51,224 nt of DNA from a virus: the IMG/VR virus record IMGVR_UViG_3300042381_000806, positions 1 to 51,224 of that record. One strand, 5' to 3'. Position 1 is the stretch's first letter. Each line of letters begins with the position of its first letter. A model generated the notes under the pieces. That model was not told where the DNA came from, did not search any database, and saw only the letters and a list, made by a program, of their open reading frames with translations. The position numbers were made by a program, and so were the translations under genes. This document shows positions 27,290-44,533 of the stretch, in pieces.

Positions 27290-28609
27290 ATGAGTCAAAA
27301 CAATCGTTTCCTAGTAGAAAAGTGGAAGCCAGTTCTGGACCACGAAAAATTCGGCCGTATCGGTGATGATTATCGCCGTGGCGTTACTGCAACAATTCTA
27401 GAGAACACACAGAACGCTCTGCGCGAAGACCGCACCGCAGTTTCTATGACGTCTCTCTTGAGCGAAACAACAAACAACACCTACGGCGCTGGCGCTGGTG
27501 CTGCTGGATTTAGTTCTGGTGCAGAGGCTAGCGGTCCAACCGCTGGTTATGACCCAATCCTAATCAGCTTGGTTCGTCGTTCCATGCCTAACCTGATTGC
27601 TTACGATATCGCTGGTGTTCAGCCGATGACTGGTCCAACCGGACTTATCTTCGCGATGCGCTCCAAGTACACTGCAATGGCTGGTAACACTTCAACAGAA
27701 GCTTTCTACGGCGAAGCAAACACCGCGTTCTCTGGAACCGGAACACCAAACTCCGCTGGTCTTCCAACCAACGCAAACTTCGGTACTGCTATGAGAACTG
27801 AAGTAGGCGAAACTCTTGGTACTGGCGGCAACCCATTCGGCGAAATGGCTTTCTCAATCGAAAAAGTCGCTGTCGAAGCAAAGACCCGCGCATTGAAAGC
27901 AGAATACACCACTGAACTTGCACAAGACCTCAAGGCAGTTCATGGTCTGGACGCTGAGACAGAACTTGCAAACATCCTTTCTTCTGAAATCCTTGTTGAA
28001 ATCAACAGAGAAGTTGTTCGTACAATCTATAGTTCTGCTGTTCAGGGTTCTCAGGGAACCGCTGTAAACGGTACATTCGATCTTGACGTTGACGCAAATG
28101 GCCGTTGGTCAGTTGAGAAGTTCAAGGGTCTGATGTTCCAGATTGAGAAAGAAGCTAACGCAATTGCTAAGGCAACTCGTCGCGGCAAGGGTAACATCGT
28201 TATCTGTTCTTCTGATGTTGCTTCTGCACTTCAGATGGCTGGTATCCTTGATTACACTCCTGCTCTAAACTCTAACAATCTACAGGTAGATGATACCGGC
28301 AATACTTTCGCTGGTGTTCTGAACGGCCGCTTCCGCGTATACATCGACCCATACGCTGGTTCAAACTACCTGGTTGTTGGTTACAAGGGCTCATCCGCGT
28401 TTGACGCTGGTATTTTCTACTGCCCATACGTTCCACTACAGATGGTTCGTGCTATCGGCGAAGATACCTTCCAGCCAAAAATTGGCTTCAAGACCCGCTA
28501 CGGCATGGTCGCGAACCCATTCGCTGGTGGCGCTACTCAAGGTATGGGTGCTATCTCTGCTGCATCAAACGTGTACTACAGAAAAGTTATTGTATCAAAT
28601 CTGTTCTGA
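27290..28609 (+). CDS. 23: Major capsid protein, gp23 homologue
   Basis: 439 residues. SLVRRSMPNLIAYDIAGVQPMTGPTGLIFAMRSKY is the hallmark gp23 block. The conserved central and C-terminal blocks (VEAKTRALKAEYTTELAQDLKAVHGLDAE, GFKTRYGMVANPF) follow. It is shorter than T4 gp23 (521), as in many non-enterobacterial T4-like phages. The N-terminal ~60 residues are likely removed by gp21. Codons are more C/G-ending than in neighbours, as expected for the most abundant protein. A UUCG-capped terminator follows. Confidence 0.97.
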   Translation: MSQNNRFLVEKWKPVLDHEKFGRIGDDYRRGVTATILENTQNALREDRTAVSMTSLLSETTNNTYGAGAGAAGFSSGAEASGPTAGYDPILISLVRRSMPNLIAYDIAGVQPMTGPTGLIFAMRSKYTAMAGNTSTEAFYGEANTAFSGTGTPNSAGLPTNANFGTAMRTEVGETLGTGGNPFGEMAFSIEKVAVEAKTRALKAEYTTELAQDLKAVHGLDAETELANILSSEILVEINREVVRTIYSSAVQGSQGTAVNGTFDLDVDANGRWSVEKFKGLMFQIEKEANAIAKATRRGKGNIVICSSDVASALQMAGILDYTPALNSNNLQVDDTGNTFAGVLNGRFRVYIDPYAGSNYLVVGYKGSSAFDAGIFYCPYVPLQMVRAIGEDTFQPKIGFKTRYGMVANPFAGGATQGMGAISAASNVYYRKVIVSNLF

Positions 28610-28672: not shown

Positions 28673-28727
28673 ATTGCTAAGTCAAAAACTATTTTCAGTT
28701 TCTTCTTATCGTAAGCAACTTACTCTA

Positions 28728-28734
28728 ATAAATA
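28728..28734 (+). promoter_or_regulatory. Late promoter core for the GIY-YIG endonuclease gene
   Basis: TAATAAATAGAAG, with the predicted start of transcription at about 28740, where the structured leader begins. Confidence 0.7.
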
Positions 28735-28739
28735 GAAGT

Positions 28740-28777
28740 ATAGGTCGCGGAGGTCGAGTCCCACCTATTCTAGAACT
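28740..28777 (+). ncRNA. Structured 5' leader, copy 1 (two nested stems plus TCTAGAACT)
   Basis: Outer stem ATAGGT (28740-28745) pairs perfectly with ACCTAT (28763-28768). CGC bulge, then inner stem GGA/TCC with 7-nt loop GGTCGAG. TCTAGAACT follows (28769-28777). The same layout with different paired bases occurs at 43022-43061, which supports a conserved RNA structure at the mRNA 5' end. Confidence 0.6.
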
Positions 28778-28803
28778 ATCATTTTTTGGAAGGAGTCCCA
28801 GCA

Positions 28804-29625
28804 ATGTCTATTTATACTGGTTTTGTTTACATTTGGTTTGATCGCAAAAAGAAGTGGTTTTGTATTGGTTCTCACATGGGTAGTTTGGATGATGGTTATA
28901 CCTCATCAACTGGTTTCATGAAAAAGGCATACAAAAAGCGACCAAATGACTTTAGACGAAAAATACTTGAGTTTTACTATGGAAACGACAGCAGAGAACT
29001 ATTCTCTATTGAACAAAAGTATCTTGACATGATAAAGGATGCAGAACTTTGTCTTGGTGAAAATAAGACAAATGGAACCATAAGATATTACAATGTAAAG
29101 AAGAAAGCATTAGGAATTTCTGGTATAGCCGCTTCTGTTATAAAGAAAAGCTATTGGAATAGTGAAATTGGTAGAAAAAAGAAGATGGAAATGAGTGAAA
29201 ACATGAAGAAAAATAATCCATCAAAAAAGGGCGCGGTTCCTTGGAATAAAGGAAAGCGTTGTCCGTCAATTTCAATTGCAAAACTTGGAAAATCTATGAA
29301 CTATACAGAAGAACAACGAAATCGTAGATCGGAAAGGTCCAAAGAGTTATGGGCCGATCCAGAATATCTAGAAAAAATGCGCAACCGCAAAAGCCCAGAC
29401 TATGAAAAAATAGCAGACAAAATGCGCGGCCGAAATCACGACGAAGATACTAAGGCTCGCATATCAGAATCTTTGCTGGGAAAACAAAAGACAGAAGAAC
29501 ACAAACTGGCAATGAAAGTATCTGCTAAAACAAGAAACCCATTTACATGCCCGCATTGTGGATTTCAAGGAAGGGGTGGTCATCGCTATCACTTCAATAA
29601 CTGCAAATCTTTTCCCAAAGAATAA
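28804..29625 (+). CDS. GIY-YIG homing endonuclease with NUMOD3-like motifs and zinc finger
   Basis: 273 residues from ATG 28804 (GGAAGGAG ends 8 nt upstream; TTG 28786 lacks an SD). The N-terminus has GFVYIW ... FCIGSHMG, a GIY-YIG core, with RRKIL and a later catalytic-type Glu in IEQKYL. The middle has NUMOD3-like DNA-binding repeats (NKGKR, SESLLGKQKTEEHK). The C-terminus has CPHCGF...HYHFNNC, a zinc finger. Free-standing selfish gene between gp23 and the convergent early genes, with its own late promoter and leader. A second endonuclease at 43089 shares the leader and finger type. Confidence 0.85.
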   Translation: MSIYTGFVYIWFDRKKKWFCIGSHMGSLDDGYTSSTGFMKKAYKKRPNDFRRKILEFYYGNDSRELFSIEQKYLDMIKDAELCLGENKTNGTIRYYNVKKKALGISGIAASVIKKSYWNSEIGRKKKMEMSENMKKNNPSKKGAVPWNKGKRCPSISIAKLGKSMNYTEEQRNRRSERSKELWADPEYLEKMRNRKSPDYEKIADKMRGRNHDEDTKARISESLLGKQKTEEHKLAMKVSAKTRNPFTCPHCGFQGRGGHRYHFNNCKSFPKE

Positions 29626-42404: not shown

Positions 42405-42992
42405 TCAATTTCCGGTTATCAACTCATATATTTCTTTCCAGTTTGTCACACGTCTCACATCTTCATGATGATCATCAATATTATAATGATGAGACATCAA
42501 AATGGGCTTCATACCATGACCCAAACCCATCAAGGCATTTTTCATCAAATCTTCAATCCAAAAGCACCCAGTTCCTTCATATTCTTTCAGTAGTTCTTTT
42601 TTGTTCGATGAACTGCCACATAGGGTCAAGCGCTCAAATGCTGTCTTACCAAAGAGGTTGTGAATGTTTTCCATTCTGGCATCATACATATCGCGTGTAT
42701 TTGGAATTGCGCTGATGCAATGGAACACATAGCCATGATCTTCGTGAAGTTTGCGGATGTATTTGATGGCGTCTTTGAATGGAGGCAAACTCCGCATGGC
42801 AGCACTTTCATTGAAAGCAGCTGCCAGCTCATCGCCTTCTTCTTTCGAGATGCCATATTTGTCTTCGATGCTGTAGAATCCGTTTATGGTTTCTTTGTAC
42901 CCCTTGGACACCATTGACATGTGGAAACCGTGTTCCCAATACCCAATAACCCCATCGAAATCTGTGACAATCACATTGTCATAAGCAATCAT
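42405..42992 (-). CDS. HAD hydrolase, 5'(3')-deoxyribonucleotidase-like, copy 1
   Basis: 195 residues. Motif I is VTDFDGVIGYWEHGF (DxD at 11-13). CISAIPNT is motif II. GCFWIEDLMKNA is motif IV. The layout is that of NT5C-type 5'(3')-nucleotidases, which hydrolyse dNMPs or related nucleotides. The first 29 bases of the gene lie in a 30-bp repeat duplicated at 44033-44062. The SD (GGAG at 43000-43003) comes from the inserted endonuclease cassette. A second nucleotidase-like gene was probably adjacent before the insertion. Confidence 0.82.
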   Translation of the reverse strand: MIAYDNVIVTDFDGVIGYWEHGFHMSMVSKGYKETINGFYSIEDKYGISKEEGDELAAAFNESAAMRSLPPFKDAIKYIRKLHEDHGYVFHCISAIPNTRDMYDARMENIHNLFGKTAFERLTLCGSSSNKKELLKEYEGTGCFWIEDLMKNALMGLGHGMKPILMSHHYNIDDHHEDVRRVTNWKEIYELITGN

Positions 42993-42993
42993 T
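42964..42993. repeat. 30-bp direct repeat, right copy
   Basis: Identical to 44033-44062. It contains the dyad TGACAATcacATTGTCA (42965-42981) and the ATG of the 42405-42992 gene. Confidence 0.95.
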
Positions 42994-43009
42994 CAATATC
43001 TCCATAATG

Positions 43010-43016
43010 ATAAATA
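43010..43016 (+). promoter_or_regulatory. Late promoter core for the HNH endonuclease gene
   Basis: TGATAAATAGAAG, the same eleven bases (ATAAATAGAAG) as upstream of the 28804 endonuclease. Predicted start at about 43022. Confidence 0.7.
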
Positions 43017-43021
43017 GAAGT

Positions 43022-43061
43022 GTCAATCGCGGTAGTGCAAATACCCACTGACTCTAGAACT
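43022..43061 (+). ncRNA. Structured 5' leader, copy 2
   Basis: Outer stem GTCAAT (43022-43027) with ACTGAC (43047-43052), five of six pairs. CGC bulge; inner stem GGTA/TACC with 7-nt loop GTGCAAA. Then TCTAGAACT (43053-43061). Compared with copy 1 at 28740, paired bases differ but pairing is kept. Confidence 0.6.
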
Positions 43062-43088
43062 TGTCACCTAAAAGAAGGAGCTCCAGCA

Positions 43089-44033
43089 ATGGATATTTAT
43101 CCGATTCTAGCATCAAAGCCTCATAGCGAACATCATCTCAATAGATATATCAGGTTTATTGAGCAATGTCAACAGAATAACAAAAAGTCTTCCATAAAAA
43201 CACATAGGCATCATATTTGCCCAAGAGCAAAAGATATGTTTCCAGAATATGAGTCGTTCGCCAAGAACAAATGGAATATGGCACGACTGACGCCACGACA
43301 GCATTTCATCGCCCACATAATGTTGTGGAAAGTATATCCAAACATTTCTTCGCAGTTCAATGCTGTTTGGCAAATGAAACACAGAAATAACGAACAAATG
43401 AATTCGCGACTATATGAAAGCGTTCTATTAGAGCATAGCAGAGTAACCTCAGCTAGACTAAAAAATACGGTTTCTGTATATGATGCAAATGGTTTATTTC
43501 ATCGTATTCCAGTAAGTGAATATGACGAAAGTAAGCATACACCCATTTCTGCAAATAGAGTAGTAGCAAAAATGGATAGCGGTGATTATGTTGTGGTTTC
43601 TGTAGATGAGTTTCGTTCTAGAACTGATTTACACGGAACAACAAAAAATACGAAAGCATGGAATGATGGAAATACTGTTATGTATTCTTACAAAAATCCT
43701 GGCCCTGGTTTTACGAGGGGTCATTTACCCCTCTCGGATGAGCAGAAGAAAATTCGTAATGAAAAGACTCGACAGACTATATCAAAAAGAACATCAGAAG
43801 AAAATAAACTAATCAGTATAAAGAGCTCTCAAGCTAAAAGAGAGTATTATGCCAATCTCTCACCAGAAGAAAGAAAAAAGCCGCAAGAGTTCAAAGACAA
43901 GTTGTCGGAAATCAGGAAAGAAAGCAATCCGGGTTTCAGAGCAACTCACGCCTGCCCTACTTGCGGCAAAGAAGGTCAGAAAGCTAATATTTCAAAGCAT
44001 CACGGTCTCAATGGCGAAAAGTGTAGATGGTAG
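43089..44033 (+). CDS. HNH homing endonuclease with C-terminal zinc finger
   Basis: 314 residues from ATG 43089 (GAAGGAG ends 8 nt upstream). The HNH core is HRHHICPRAKDM, NKWNMARLTPRQHFIAHIMLWK. The middle resembles NUMOD-type DNA-binding repeats (FTRGHLPLSDEQKK, RTSEENKLISIKSSQ). CPTCGKEGQKANISKHHG...C is a terminal finger like the one in the GIY-YIG enzyme at 28804. It stands on the plus strand, against the flanking genes, inside 30-bp repeats. It is a selfish gene expected to cut phages lacking the insert near the nucleotidase start. Confidence 0.88.
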   Translation: MDIYPILASKPHSEHHLNRYIRFIEQCQQNNKKSSIKTHRHHICPRAKDMFPEYESFAKNKWNMARLTPRQHFIAHIMLWKVYPNISSQFNAVWQMKHRNNEQMNSRLYESVLLEHSRVTSARLKNTVSVYDANGLFHRIPVSEYDESKHTPISANRVVAKMDSGDYVVVSVDEFRSRTDLHGTTKNTKAWNDGNTVMYSYKNPGPGFTRGHLPLSDEQKKIRNEKTRQTISKRTSEENKLISIKSSQAKREYYANLSPEERKKPQEFKDKLSEIRKESNPGFRATHACPTCGKEGQKANISKHHGLNGEKCRW

Positions 44034-44062
44034 TGACAATCACATTGTCATAAGCAATCATT
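44033..44062. repeat. 30-bp direct repeat, left-end copy
   Basis: Identical to 42964-42993. It starts at the last base of the HNH stop codon and ends next to the TAA of the 44063 gene. Confidence 0.95.
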
Positions 44063-44533
44063 TTACAATCCCGTAATCTTGAAGATTTCCCGCAGTGTGT
44101 CAGCGGTGTTCTTGTGAACAATTGCGATGCCGCCGAGCTCTTTCCATGCCTTGCAGTTTTTTTCGAAGTCATCAATCAGAATGTCGCCAGGTTCGTGCAT
44201 GAACAATGCTTTGTTCACTCCGCCCATCATCGGAATGACAGTAATGTCTTTGGATAGATGTTCCCGCACCCAAGCCCGTTTTTGAATAGCAGCATTTTTG
44301 TAGTTCGACTTTGGGCAAGCAGACAGAATGGTAACATCAAAATTGTCAACCAATATGTTGAACATCCCCTTTGCATCTTTCATAAGCGGAAGGTTAGCGT
44401 AGAAGTCGTGGTAGCCGTTGATCATCTTCCACATCACATCGTCGTCAAGCGTTTGTGGGTCAACGCCGAATTTTTCAACAAAGTGGGTGTCGAAGTCCGC
44501 CATCACGCCATCGAGGTCTAGGTAGATACGCAT
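44063..44533 (-). CDS. HAD hydrolase, 5'(3')-deoxyribonucleotidase-like, copy 2
   Basis: 156 residues. Motif I is LDLDGVMADFDTHFV (DxD at 6-8). VTILSACPKSNYKNAAIQKRAWVREHL is the motif II region, and GDILIDDFEKNCKAWKELGGIAIVH holds motif IV. It is shorter than the 42405 paralogue and more typical of phage NT5C. It likely hydrolyses nucleoside monophosphates from degraded host DNA. It has a canonical sigma70 promoter at 44566-44594. Confidence 0.87.
   Translation of the reverse strand: MRIYLDLDGVMADFDTHFVEKFGVDPQTLDDDVMWKMINGYHDFYANLPLMKDAKGMFNILVDNFDVTILSACPKSNYKNAAIQKRAWVREHLSKDITVIPMMGGVNKALFMHEPGDILIDDFEKNCKAWKELGGIAIVHKNTADTLREIFKITGL

What the first reader, a model, noticed from the sequence alone, without database searches (positions are those of the whole stretch)
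42964..44062. HNH gene bounded by perfect 30-bp repeats that duplicate a gene start
42964-42993 and 44033-44062 are identical over 30 bp and contain the dyad TGACAATcacATTGTCA. The repeat holds the ATG of the 42405-42992 nucleotidase gene. One copy remains as its real start and the other is stranded beside the neighbouring nucleotidase gene. The cassette also supplies a Shine-Dalgarno (GGAG, 43000-43003) for the displaced gene on the opposite strand. Target duplication is not a usual trait of free-standing homing genes, so the insertion mechanism is of interest.
Basis: partly seen in the sequence, partly recalled or inferred. Interest (0 to 1): 0.78.

Follow-up and report, generated by a model that had tools for sequence, protein, structure and literature searches.

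The report
Phage homing gene with shared RNA leader
A DNA-cutting "homing" gene has inserted into the start of a neighbouring phage gene and left a stranded 30-base copy of that start behind; it belongs to a family of mobile nuclease cassettes that all share one previously uncatalogued folded RNA leader, although their nucleases are of at least three unrelated kinds.

Summary
Observation confirmed: 42964-42993 and 44033-44062 are identical (30/30), and six insert-free homologous loci carry a single copy. Target duplication recurs: DNA-level terminal gene duplications flank 5 of about 42 related cassettes, against 0 of 293 control ORFs. Outside this window the copies are diverged alleles (72-85% identical), so a fixed staggered cut is unlikely. 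Best model: one-sided break repair, in which the cassette arrives fused to a donor copy of the severed gene end, restoring the gene and stranding the resident end. Fungal mitochondria have a precedent for 3' ends.

The larger find is the HNH gene's leader (43022-43087). Compensatory changes support its structure in 49 copies (covariation 0.71 against 0.16 shuffled; 14 of 15 pairs changed on both sides). It precedes HNH, GIY-YIG and PD-(D/E)XK-type nucleases, including a second cassette here (28720-29625) and the annotated homing endonuclease of cultured Caulobacter phage Cr30. Rfam 15 has no match. Three cassettes at this nucleotidase site share a C-terminal tail (55-67%) despite unrelated catalytic domains, so the tail probably sets the site. 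The dyad is not conserved and is probably incidental. Leader function, cut site and donor/resident polarity are untested.

The parts
42964..42993 (-). Right copy of the 30-bp repeat: functional start (ATG 42992) of nucleotidase gene 2
42405..42992 (-). Displaced nucleotidase gene (NT5C, phrog_420), 195 aa, complete
43000..43003 (-). GGAG Shine-Dalgarno for the displaced gene, supplied by the cassette
43009..43016 (+). GATAAATA, T4-type late-promoter motif of the HNH gene (ATAAATA enriched in window: 24 against 10.8 expected)
43022..43087 (+). Structured RNA leader: helix 1 (43022-43027/43047-43052), helix 2 (43031-43034/43042-43045), helix 3 over the Shine-Dalgarno (43057-43061/43079-43083), CAGC 43084-43087
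   Evidence: covariation in A1, A3, A4; no Rfam match
43089..44033 (+). HNH homing endonuclease gene, 314 aa, phrog_655; C-terminal Zn-ribbon-like tail
43094..43100 (+). TATTTAT, conserved in nucleotides across all three reading frames; its reverse complement is ATAAATA
44033..44062 (-). Left copy of the 30-bp repeat: stranded remnant of the gene start
44063..44533 (-). Upstream nucleotidase gene (phrog_2643, 5'-3' deoxyribonucleotidase), 156 aa
28720..28819 (+). Second copy of the leader in the window, with a different apical loop
28804..29625 (+). Second cassette nuclease gene (273 aa; phrog_314/phrog_655 homing endonuclease), after the major head protein gene 27290-28609

Best explanation
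A free-standing homing-endonuclease cassette of a T4-like phage. It consists of a late promoter, a structured RNA leader, a catalytic domain and a C-terminal targeting tail. SHOWN: it sits in the first codons of nucleotidase gene 2; insert-free relatives have one uninterrupted start; the leader is conserved by compensatory change in front of unrelated nucleases; cassettes at this site share the tail, not the catalytic domain; terminal duplications of the invaded gene recur at cassette edges. INFERRED: the enzyme cuts at or near the conserved gene terminus where the cassette sits. Repair is one-sided: one end by homology, the other by an illegitimate join. The cassette therefore arrives joined to a donor copy of the severed gene end. 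That copy becomes the working start, with a Shine-Dalgarno from the cassette, and the resident end is stranded. The duplication both keeps the invaded gene alive and separates the two halves of any recognition site longer than 30 bp. The leader probably limits translation of the nuclease, since its last helix pairs part of the Shine-Dalgarno and ends next to the start codon.
For: Single copy in insert-free relatives. Duplications at cassette edges: window 30/30; L011 36 nt, 4 synonymous differences, left copy 28/29 to the insert-free relative L009 but 25/29 to its own right copy; L154 exonuclease 3' end; L089:8425 metallophosphatase 3' end; L156 head-closure gene start; weaker protein-level cases L089:6918 and L163. 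Control 0/293. Tail identity 55-67% at this site against 22-33% for other-site HEGs with a comparable tail, while window and L011 N-termini share only 22%. Leader covariation 0.712 against 0.157, slid controls at most 0.066. One-sided illegitimate repair is documented for T4 homing (PMC2988022).
Against: In the window the copies are identical, so the two-allele argument rests on other loci. L006, at the same site, keeps at most 7 nt of duplication. Most cassettes (about 35 of 42) show no duplication. The dip in L011/L009 similarity next to the cassette is weak, so donor and resident copies are not securely assigned. No cleavage, homing or RNA assay exists. Single-sequence folding of the leader is not unusually stable (window z +1.3), so the structure rests on covariation alone.
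Confidence: 0.66

Rival explanations
1. Staggered nicks by the HNH enzyme (several phage HNH homing enzymes are nickases) about 30 nt apart, filled in after insertion, produce a true target-site duplication as in transposons.
For: Window copies are perfectly identical over 30 bp; left copies in the window and L011 both run 29 nt from the ATG.
Against: L011 copies differ at 4 synonymous sites; other duplications range from 51 nt to about 175 nt and are 72-85% identical; L006 has almost none; gene ends as well as gene starts are duplicated. No terminal inverted repeats, no transposase.
Confidence: 0.15
2. The insertion is old and vertically inherited; the remnant arose by an unrelated local duplication and the homing gene no longer moves.
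For: The sister contig is identical; some copies elsewhere are decayed (L073 split ORF, L166 leader without ORF).
Against: Empty, HNH-filled and GIY-YIG-filled alleles of one junction coexist among relatives; duplications sit at cassette edges and are absent from 293 control ORFs; leaders recur at unrelated sites, 8 in one phage.
Confidence: 0.1
3. The conserved leader is a DNA element (operator for autorepression, as for I-TevI, or a recombination end) rather than an RNA.
For: It abuts the late promoter; TATTTAT and CAGC are conserved even when the start codon or frame shifts; I-TevI autorepression is known (PMC2988022).
Against: Stem sequences vary freely while pairing is kept (214 double-change cells), which sequence-specific DNA binding would not give; a Shine-Dalgarno region is part of the element.
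Confidence: 0.15
4. The insert is a group I intron or intein remnant.
For: Phage homing genes often live in introns.
Against: No group I or II intron match in Rfam; both flanking genes are complete reading frames; the insert lies antisense between genes.
Confidence: 0.02

Closest known systems
T4 free-standing homing endonucleases (seg, mob) and Aeh1 mobE (PMC2988022)
   Same: HNH or GIY-YIG nuclease gene between conserved genes of a T4-like phage; late-promoter motif; RNA structure at the ribosome-binding site; can supply signals to displaced neighbours
   Different: T4 hairpins are reported to sequester the RBS in early transcripts with the late promoter inside the hairpin; here both hairpins lie downstream of the late-promoter motif and one leader is shared by unrelated nucleases. 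T4 cut sites are reported hundreds or thousands of bp from the gene; here tail and site correlate. The word duplication does not occur in the T4 review.
Fungal mitochondrial mobile ORFs carrying gene ends (Allomyces and Glomus atp6, atp9, cox2, nad3; PMC3630166)
   Same: Homing gene inserted with a foreign, diverged copy of the invaded gene's terminus that repairs it, resident end displaced
   Different: Those are C-terminal ends; here gene starts (window, L011, L156) as well as gene ends (L154, L089) are duplicated, in phages, with HNH and GIY-YIG enzymes and a shared RNA leader
Aeh1 mobE in nrdA, T4 mobA in gene 60 (PMC2988022)
   Same: Homing gene inserted into coding sequence of an important gene
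   Different: There the host gene is split in two; here it is kept whole by duplication of its end
I-TevI operator and hairpin (PMC2988022)
   Same: Leader region regulates a homing gene
   Different: The I-TevI operator is a DNA site resembling its homing site; this leader is conserved by base pairing across nucleases at different sites

Membership tests
T4-type free-standing homing endonuclease gene | Homing-type catalytic domain | tested here: met
   phrog_655 homing endonuclease E 2.9e-24, HNH motif HHICP..N..H invariant in relatives; Pfam gave no HNH hit above cut-off
T4-type free-standing homing endonuclease gene | Not inside an intron or intein | tested here: met
   No Rfam intron match, complete flanking ORFs
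T4-type free-standing homing endonuclease gene | Presence/absence polymorphism at a conserved gene junction | tested here: met
   six insert-free loci, three different filled alleles
T4-type free-standing homing endonuclease gene | Cuts or nicks alleles lacking the gene and is preferentially inherited | not testable with these tools
   needs enzyme and mixed infection
Transposon or insertion sequence with target-site duplication | Fixed-length identical target duplication | tested here: not met
   lengths 29 nt to about 175 nt, copies diverged at other loci
Transposon or insertion sequence with target-site duplication | Transposase and terminal inverted repeats | tested here: not met
   only a homing nuclease ORF; no inverted repeats at the insert ends
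Gene-end-carrying mobile ORF (fungal mitochondrial type) | Duplicated gene terminus flanking a homing gene, one copy in phase with the gene | tested here: met
   window, L011, L154, L156, L089:8425
Gene-end-carrying mobile ORF (fungal mitochondrial type) | The two termini come from different alleles | tested here: inconclusive
   met at L011, L154, L156, L089; in the window the copies are identical
Hairpin-regulated T4 late genes (I-TevI, segB, mobE, soc) | RBS-sequestering structure absent from the late transcript | tested here: not met
   both hairpins lie downstream of the late-promoter motif in the alignment; transcript start not mapped
Known Rfam RNA family | Score above a family's gathering threshold | tested here: not met
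IscB/HEARO RNA-guided HNH | HEARO/omega RNA adjacent to an IscB-type nuclease | tested here: not met
   no Rfam HEARO match; protein matches phage homing endonuclease families instead

The most novel reading that the evidence does not exclude
The leader is a new class of regulatory RNA that has been taken up by at least three unrelated homing-nuclease superfamilies and acts as a common platform. It may be bound by the nuclease or a phage factor, and as a shared 5' module it may let catalytic domains be swapped and cassettes spread to new sites, each time carrying a spare end of the invaded gene.
Probability: 0.2. Interest if true: 0.92.

Novelty: new variant of a known kind. Interest (0 to 1): 0.8.

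Why it matters
How free-standing homing genes enter new sites inside important phage genes without killing the phage is an open question. These loci show a recurrent answer, a spare copy of the severed gene end, that can be tested in mixed infection. The leader is a well-supported structured RNA absent from Rfam, and it ties unrelated nucleases into one set. A cultured phage with a laboratory host (Caulobacter phage Cr30 on C. crescentus CB15) carries it, so its function can be tested directly.

Tried and rejected
Dyad as recognition feature: 1-5 mismatches in nine relatives. Kissing of the apical loop with TATTTAT: loops vary in copies found by the model, so not supported. Long stem between upstream TATAAATA and downstream TATTTAT: lost in several copies that keep TATTTAT, no covariation. 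Intron: no Rfam support. Folding energy: not better than shuffles, so not used as evidence. Repeats beside window 28720 and L151 are terminator hairpins, not target copies. L159's long flank similarity is a second nuclease tail, not a target copy. L077's 18-nt flank match equals the shuffled maximum and is not counted. One collection pattern was mis-specified and found nothing. The first control run had an edge artefact (nine ORFs near contig ends) and was repeated. Two family searches failed on wrong coordinates and were rerun. PDB search gave no relevant relative. Core pattern absent from genome contigs; blastn in cultured phages missed the diverged Cr30 copy, which only the covariance model found.

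Full report
OBSERVATION. The 30-bp repeat is exact and unique. One copy is the start of the 195-aa nucleotidase, the other is stranded after the upstream nucleotidase's TAA. The window is a T4-like phage record, with a major head protein (phrog_138, E 1e-156), a PhoH-like protein and an exonuclease (phrog_107). The HNH gene starts at ATG 43089; its stop shares one base with the repeat. It belongs to phrog_655, homing endonuclease.

EMPTY AND FILLED SITES. Searching viral contigs with the displaced nucleotidase gave 11 other loci at 62-85% identity besides the identical sister contig. Six have the gene pair with no insert and one gene start: L002, L003 and L004 (same sequence here), L007, L009, L012. 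L007 matches the 30-mer at 29/30, once. L006 carries an HNH cassette at the same junction (61% identical protein). L011 carries a different nuclease there; it matches phrog_314 homing endonuclease and its catalytic part is 59% identical to the L154 nuclease. I read it as GIY-YIG type from its start motif; Pfam gave no domain hit. The sister contig is identical to the window over 8.6 kb.

A MODULAR CASSETTE. Over the first 100 residues the window protein is 75% identical to L006 but only 22% to L011. Over the last 58 residues all three are 55-67% identical. HNH relatives at other sites (L089a, N-terminus 55-57%) have tails only 24-33% identical. The tail therefore follows the site and the catalytic domain does not. 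This is inference about specificity, not a cleavage test.

THE LEADER. The sequence upstream of these genes is more conserved than the genes. Pattern scans of viral contigs found it in front of many nucleases. Covariance models extended this to 49 distinct copies. Structure: a late-promoter motif NATAAATA (39 of 49); helix 1 of six pairs; a CRC bulge; helix 2 of four pairs with a variable loop; CUCUA; helix 3 of five pairs that includes part of the Shine-Dalgarno; CAGC; then TATTTAT, usually 5 nt after the first base of the start codon. Pair counts: 94.0% of cells paired against 63.8% shuffled, covariation score 0.712 against 0.157 (0 of 500 shuffles reach it), at most 0.066 when partners are slid; 14 of 15 pairs have changes on both sides. 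A4 was fitted to the model; the unfitted MAFFT alignment A1 gives the same picture (0.529 against 0.147). Free-energy folding does not single out the element.

TATTTAT and CAGC are conserved as nucleotides. Frames differ in L079, L162, L165, L092 and L153, and in L157-L159 the start codon lies before CAGC, yet the letters persist. TATTTAT reversed is ATAAATA, the late-promoter core that is enriched in this window (24 against 10.8); whether it works as an antisense promoter is unknown.

The downstream proteins include HNH (PF01844, PF13392), GIY-YIG (PF01541, PF22945, SegE_GIY-YIG) and DUF559/REase-type nucleases, which I class as PD-(D/E)XK-like (PF04480, E 3.8e-11). One 195-kb phage record has eight copies. 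Cultured carriers: Caulobacter phage Cr30 gp204, annotated homing endonuclease, and Rhizobium phage RHph_I1_18 beside EVB91_137. No match in T4, Aeromonas phage 25, LIMEstone1, phiW-14, P-SSM2, HTVC008M or phiM12. Rfam 15 has no match. Literature searches in open-access papers found no description; subscription papers were not searchable.

TARGET DUPLICATIONS. Comparing the two flanks of each cassette at DNA level gave five clear cases at the cassette edges, each scoring 24 or more: window (30/30), L011 (36 nt), L154 (103 nt at 72%), L156 (51 nt), L089:8425 (68 nt). Among 293 control ORFs none reached 20; by my arithmetic 5 of 42 against 0 of 293 has a chance near 2.5e-5. Protein comparison added L089:6918 (11-codon remnant, E 0.004) and L163 (16 codons, E 2e-4), both weaker. 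In each clear case one copy belongs to a complete gene and the other is a remnant. L154: the exonuclease (phrog_298) is complete, its last codons overlapping the 3' end of the nuclease gene antisense, and a remnant of about 58 codons lies beyond the leader. L089:8425: metallophosphatase-like gene complete, about 38-codon remnant. L156: head-closure gene (phrog_218) complete from a start inside the nuclease 3' end, about 17-codon start remnant.

Except in the window the copies are diverged, mostly at synonymous positions. In L011 the left copy is 28/29 identical to the insert-free relative L009 but 25/29 to its own right copy. Two alleles are therefore involved at these loci. In the window the copies are identical, so the argument is carried over from the family.

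MECHANISM. Best reading: break at a conserved gene terminus, repair by homology on one side and an illegitimate join on the other, which carries in the cassette together with a donor copy of the gene end. T4 homing assays show such one-sided events with junctions at microhomology (PMC2988022). Fungal mitochondrial mobile ORFs are known to bring a foreign, diverged C-terminus that replaces the resident one (PMC3630166). Here the same is seen at gene starts as well. Selection would favour such products because clean insertions would break the gene. With 30 bp duplicated, each junction lacks one flank of a longer recognition site, so the occupied allele would be protected; this is inference.

LEADER FUNCTION. 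Helix 3 pairs part of the Shine-Dalgarno and ends next to the start codon, so lowering translation is the simplest role. It differs from the T4 scheme, where the structure exists only in early transcripts: here it lies downstream of the late-promoter motif. A DNA role or protein binding is not excluded.

VERDICT. The repeat is real and meaningful. The insertion is by a homing gene, with a duplication mode that has a mitochondrial precedent and for which I found no phage description in the open papers searched. The shared leader is a strong candidate for a new RNA family.

Noticed in passing
window 28720-29625: Second cassette with a diverged copy of the same leader, directly after the major head protein gene; L151 in another phage has the matching cassette beside its head protein gene.
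   Followed up: partly
window 43094-43100 and 28809-28815: ATAAATA on the antisense strand inside the first codons of both nuclease genes, possibly a late promoter pointing back out of the cassette.
   Followed up: partly
L079 3258-3349, L092 653-12994, L153, L162, L165: TATTTAT stays conserved although the reading frame through it differs.
   Followed up: yes
L073 5134-6128: Cassette between a gp32-like gene and a gene upstream of a recA/uvsX-like gene, with its nuclease split by a frameshift; the same locus holds an alpha-type tmRNA match at 909-1275.
   Followed up: no
L166 1951-2034 (contig of L107): Leader helices 1 and 2 kept but no nuclease gene follows: a relic.
   Followed up: no
L089 6103-8528: A metallophosphatase-like gene bracketed by two cassettes, one at each end, each with a remnant of that gene end.
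   Followed up: partly
L152 1370-2020: Leader followed by a protein with only a Zn-finger-like tail and no recognisable catalytic domain.
   Followed up: no
L159 1538-1648: Two similar nuclease-like tails in tandem around a short ORF with the leader.
   Followed up: no
IMGVR_UViG_3300005611_000002 (G010): Eight leader copies dispersed over one 194.6-kb phage record.
   Followed up: partly
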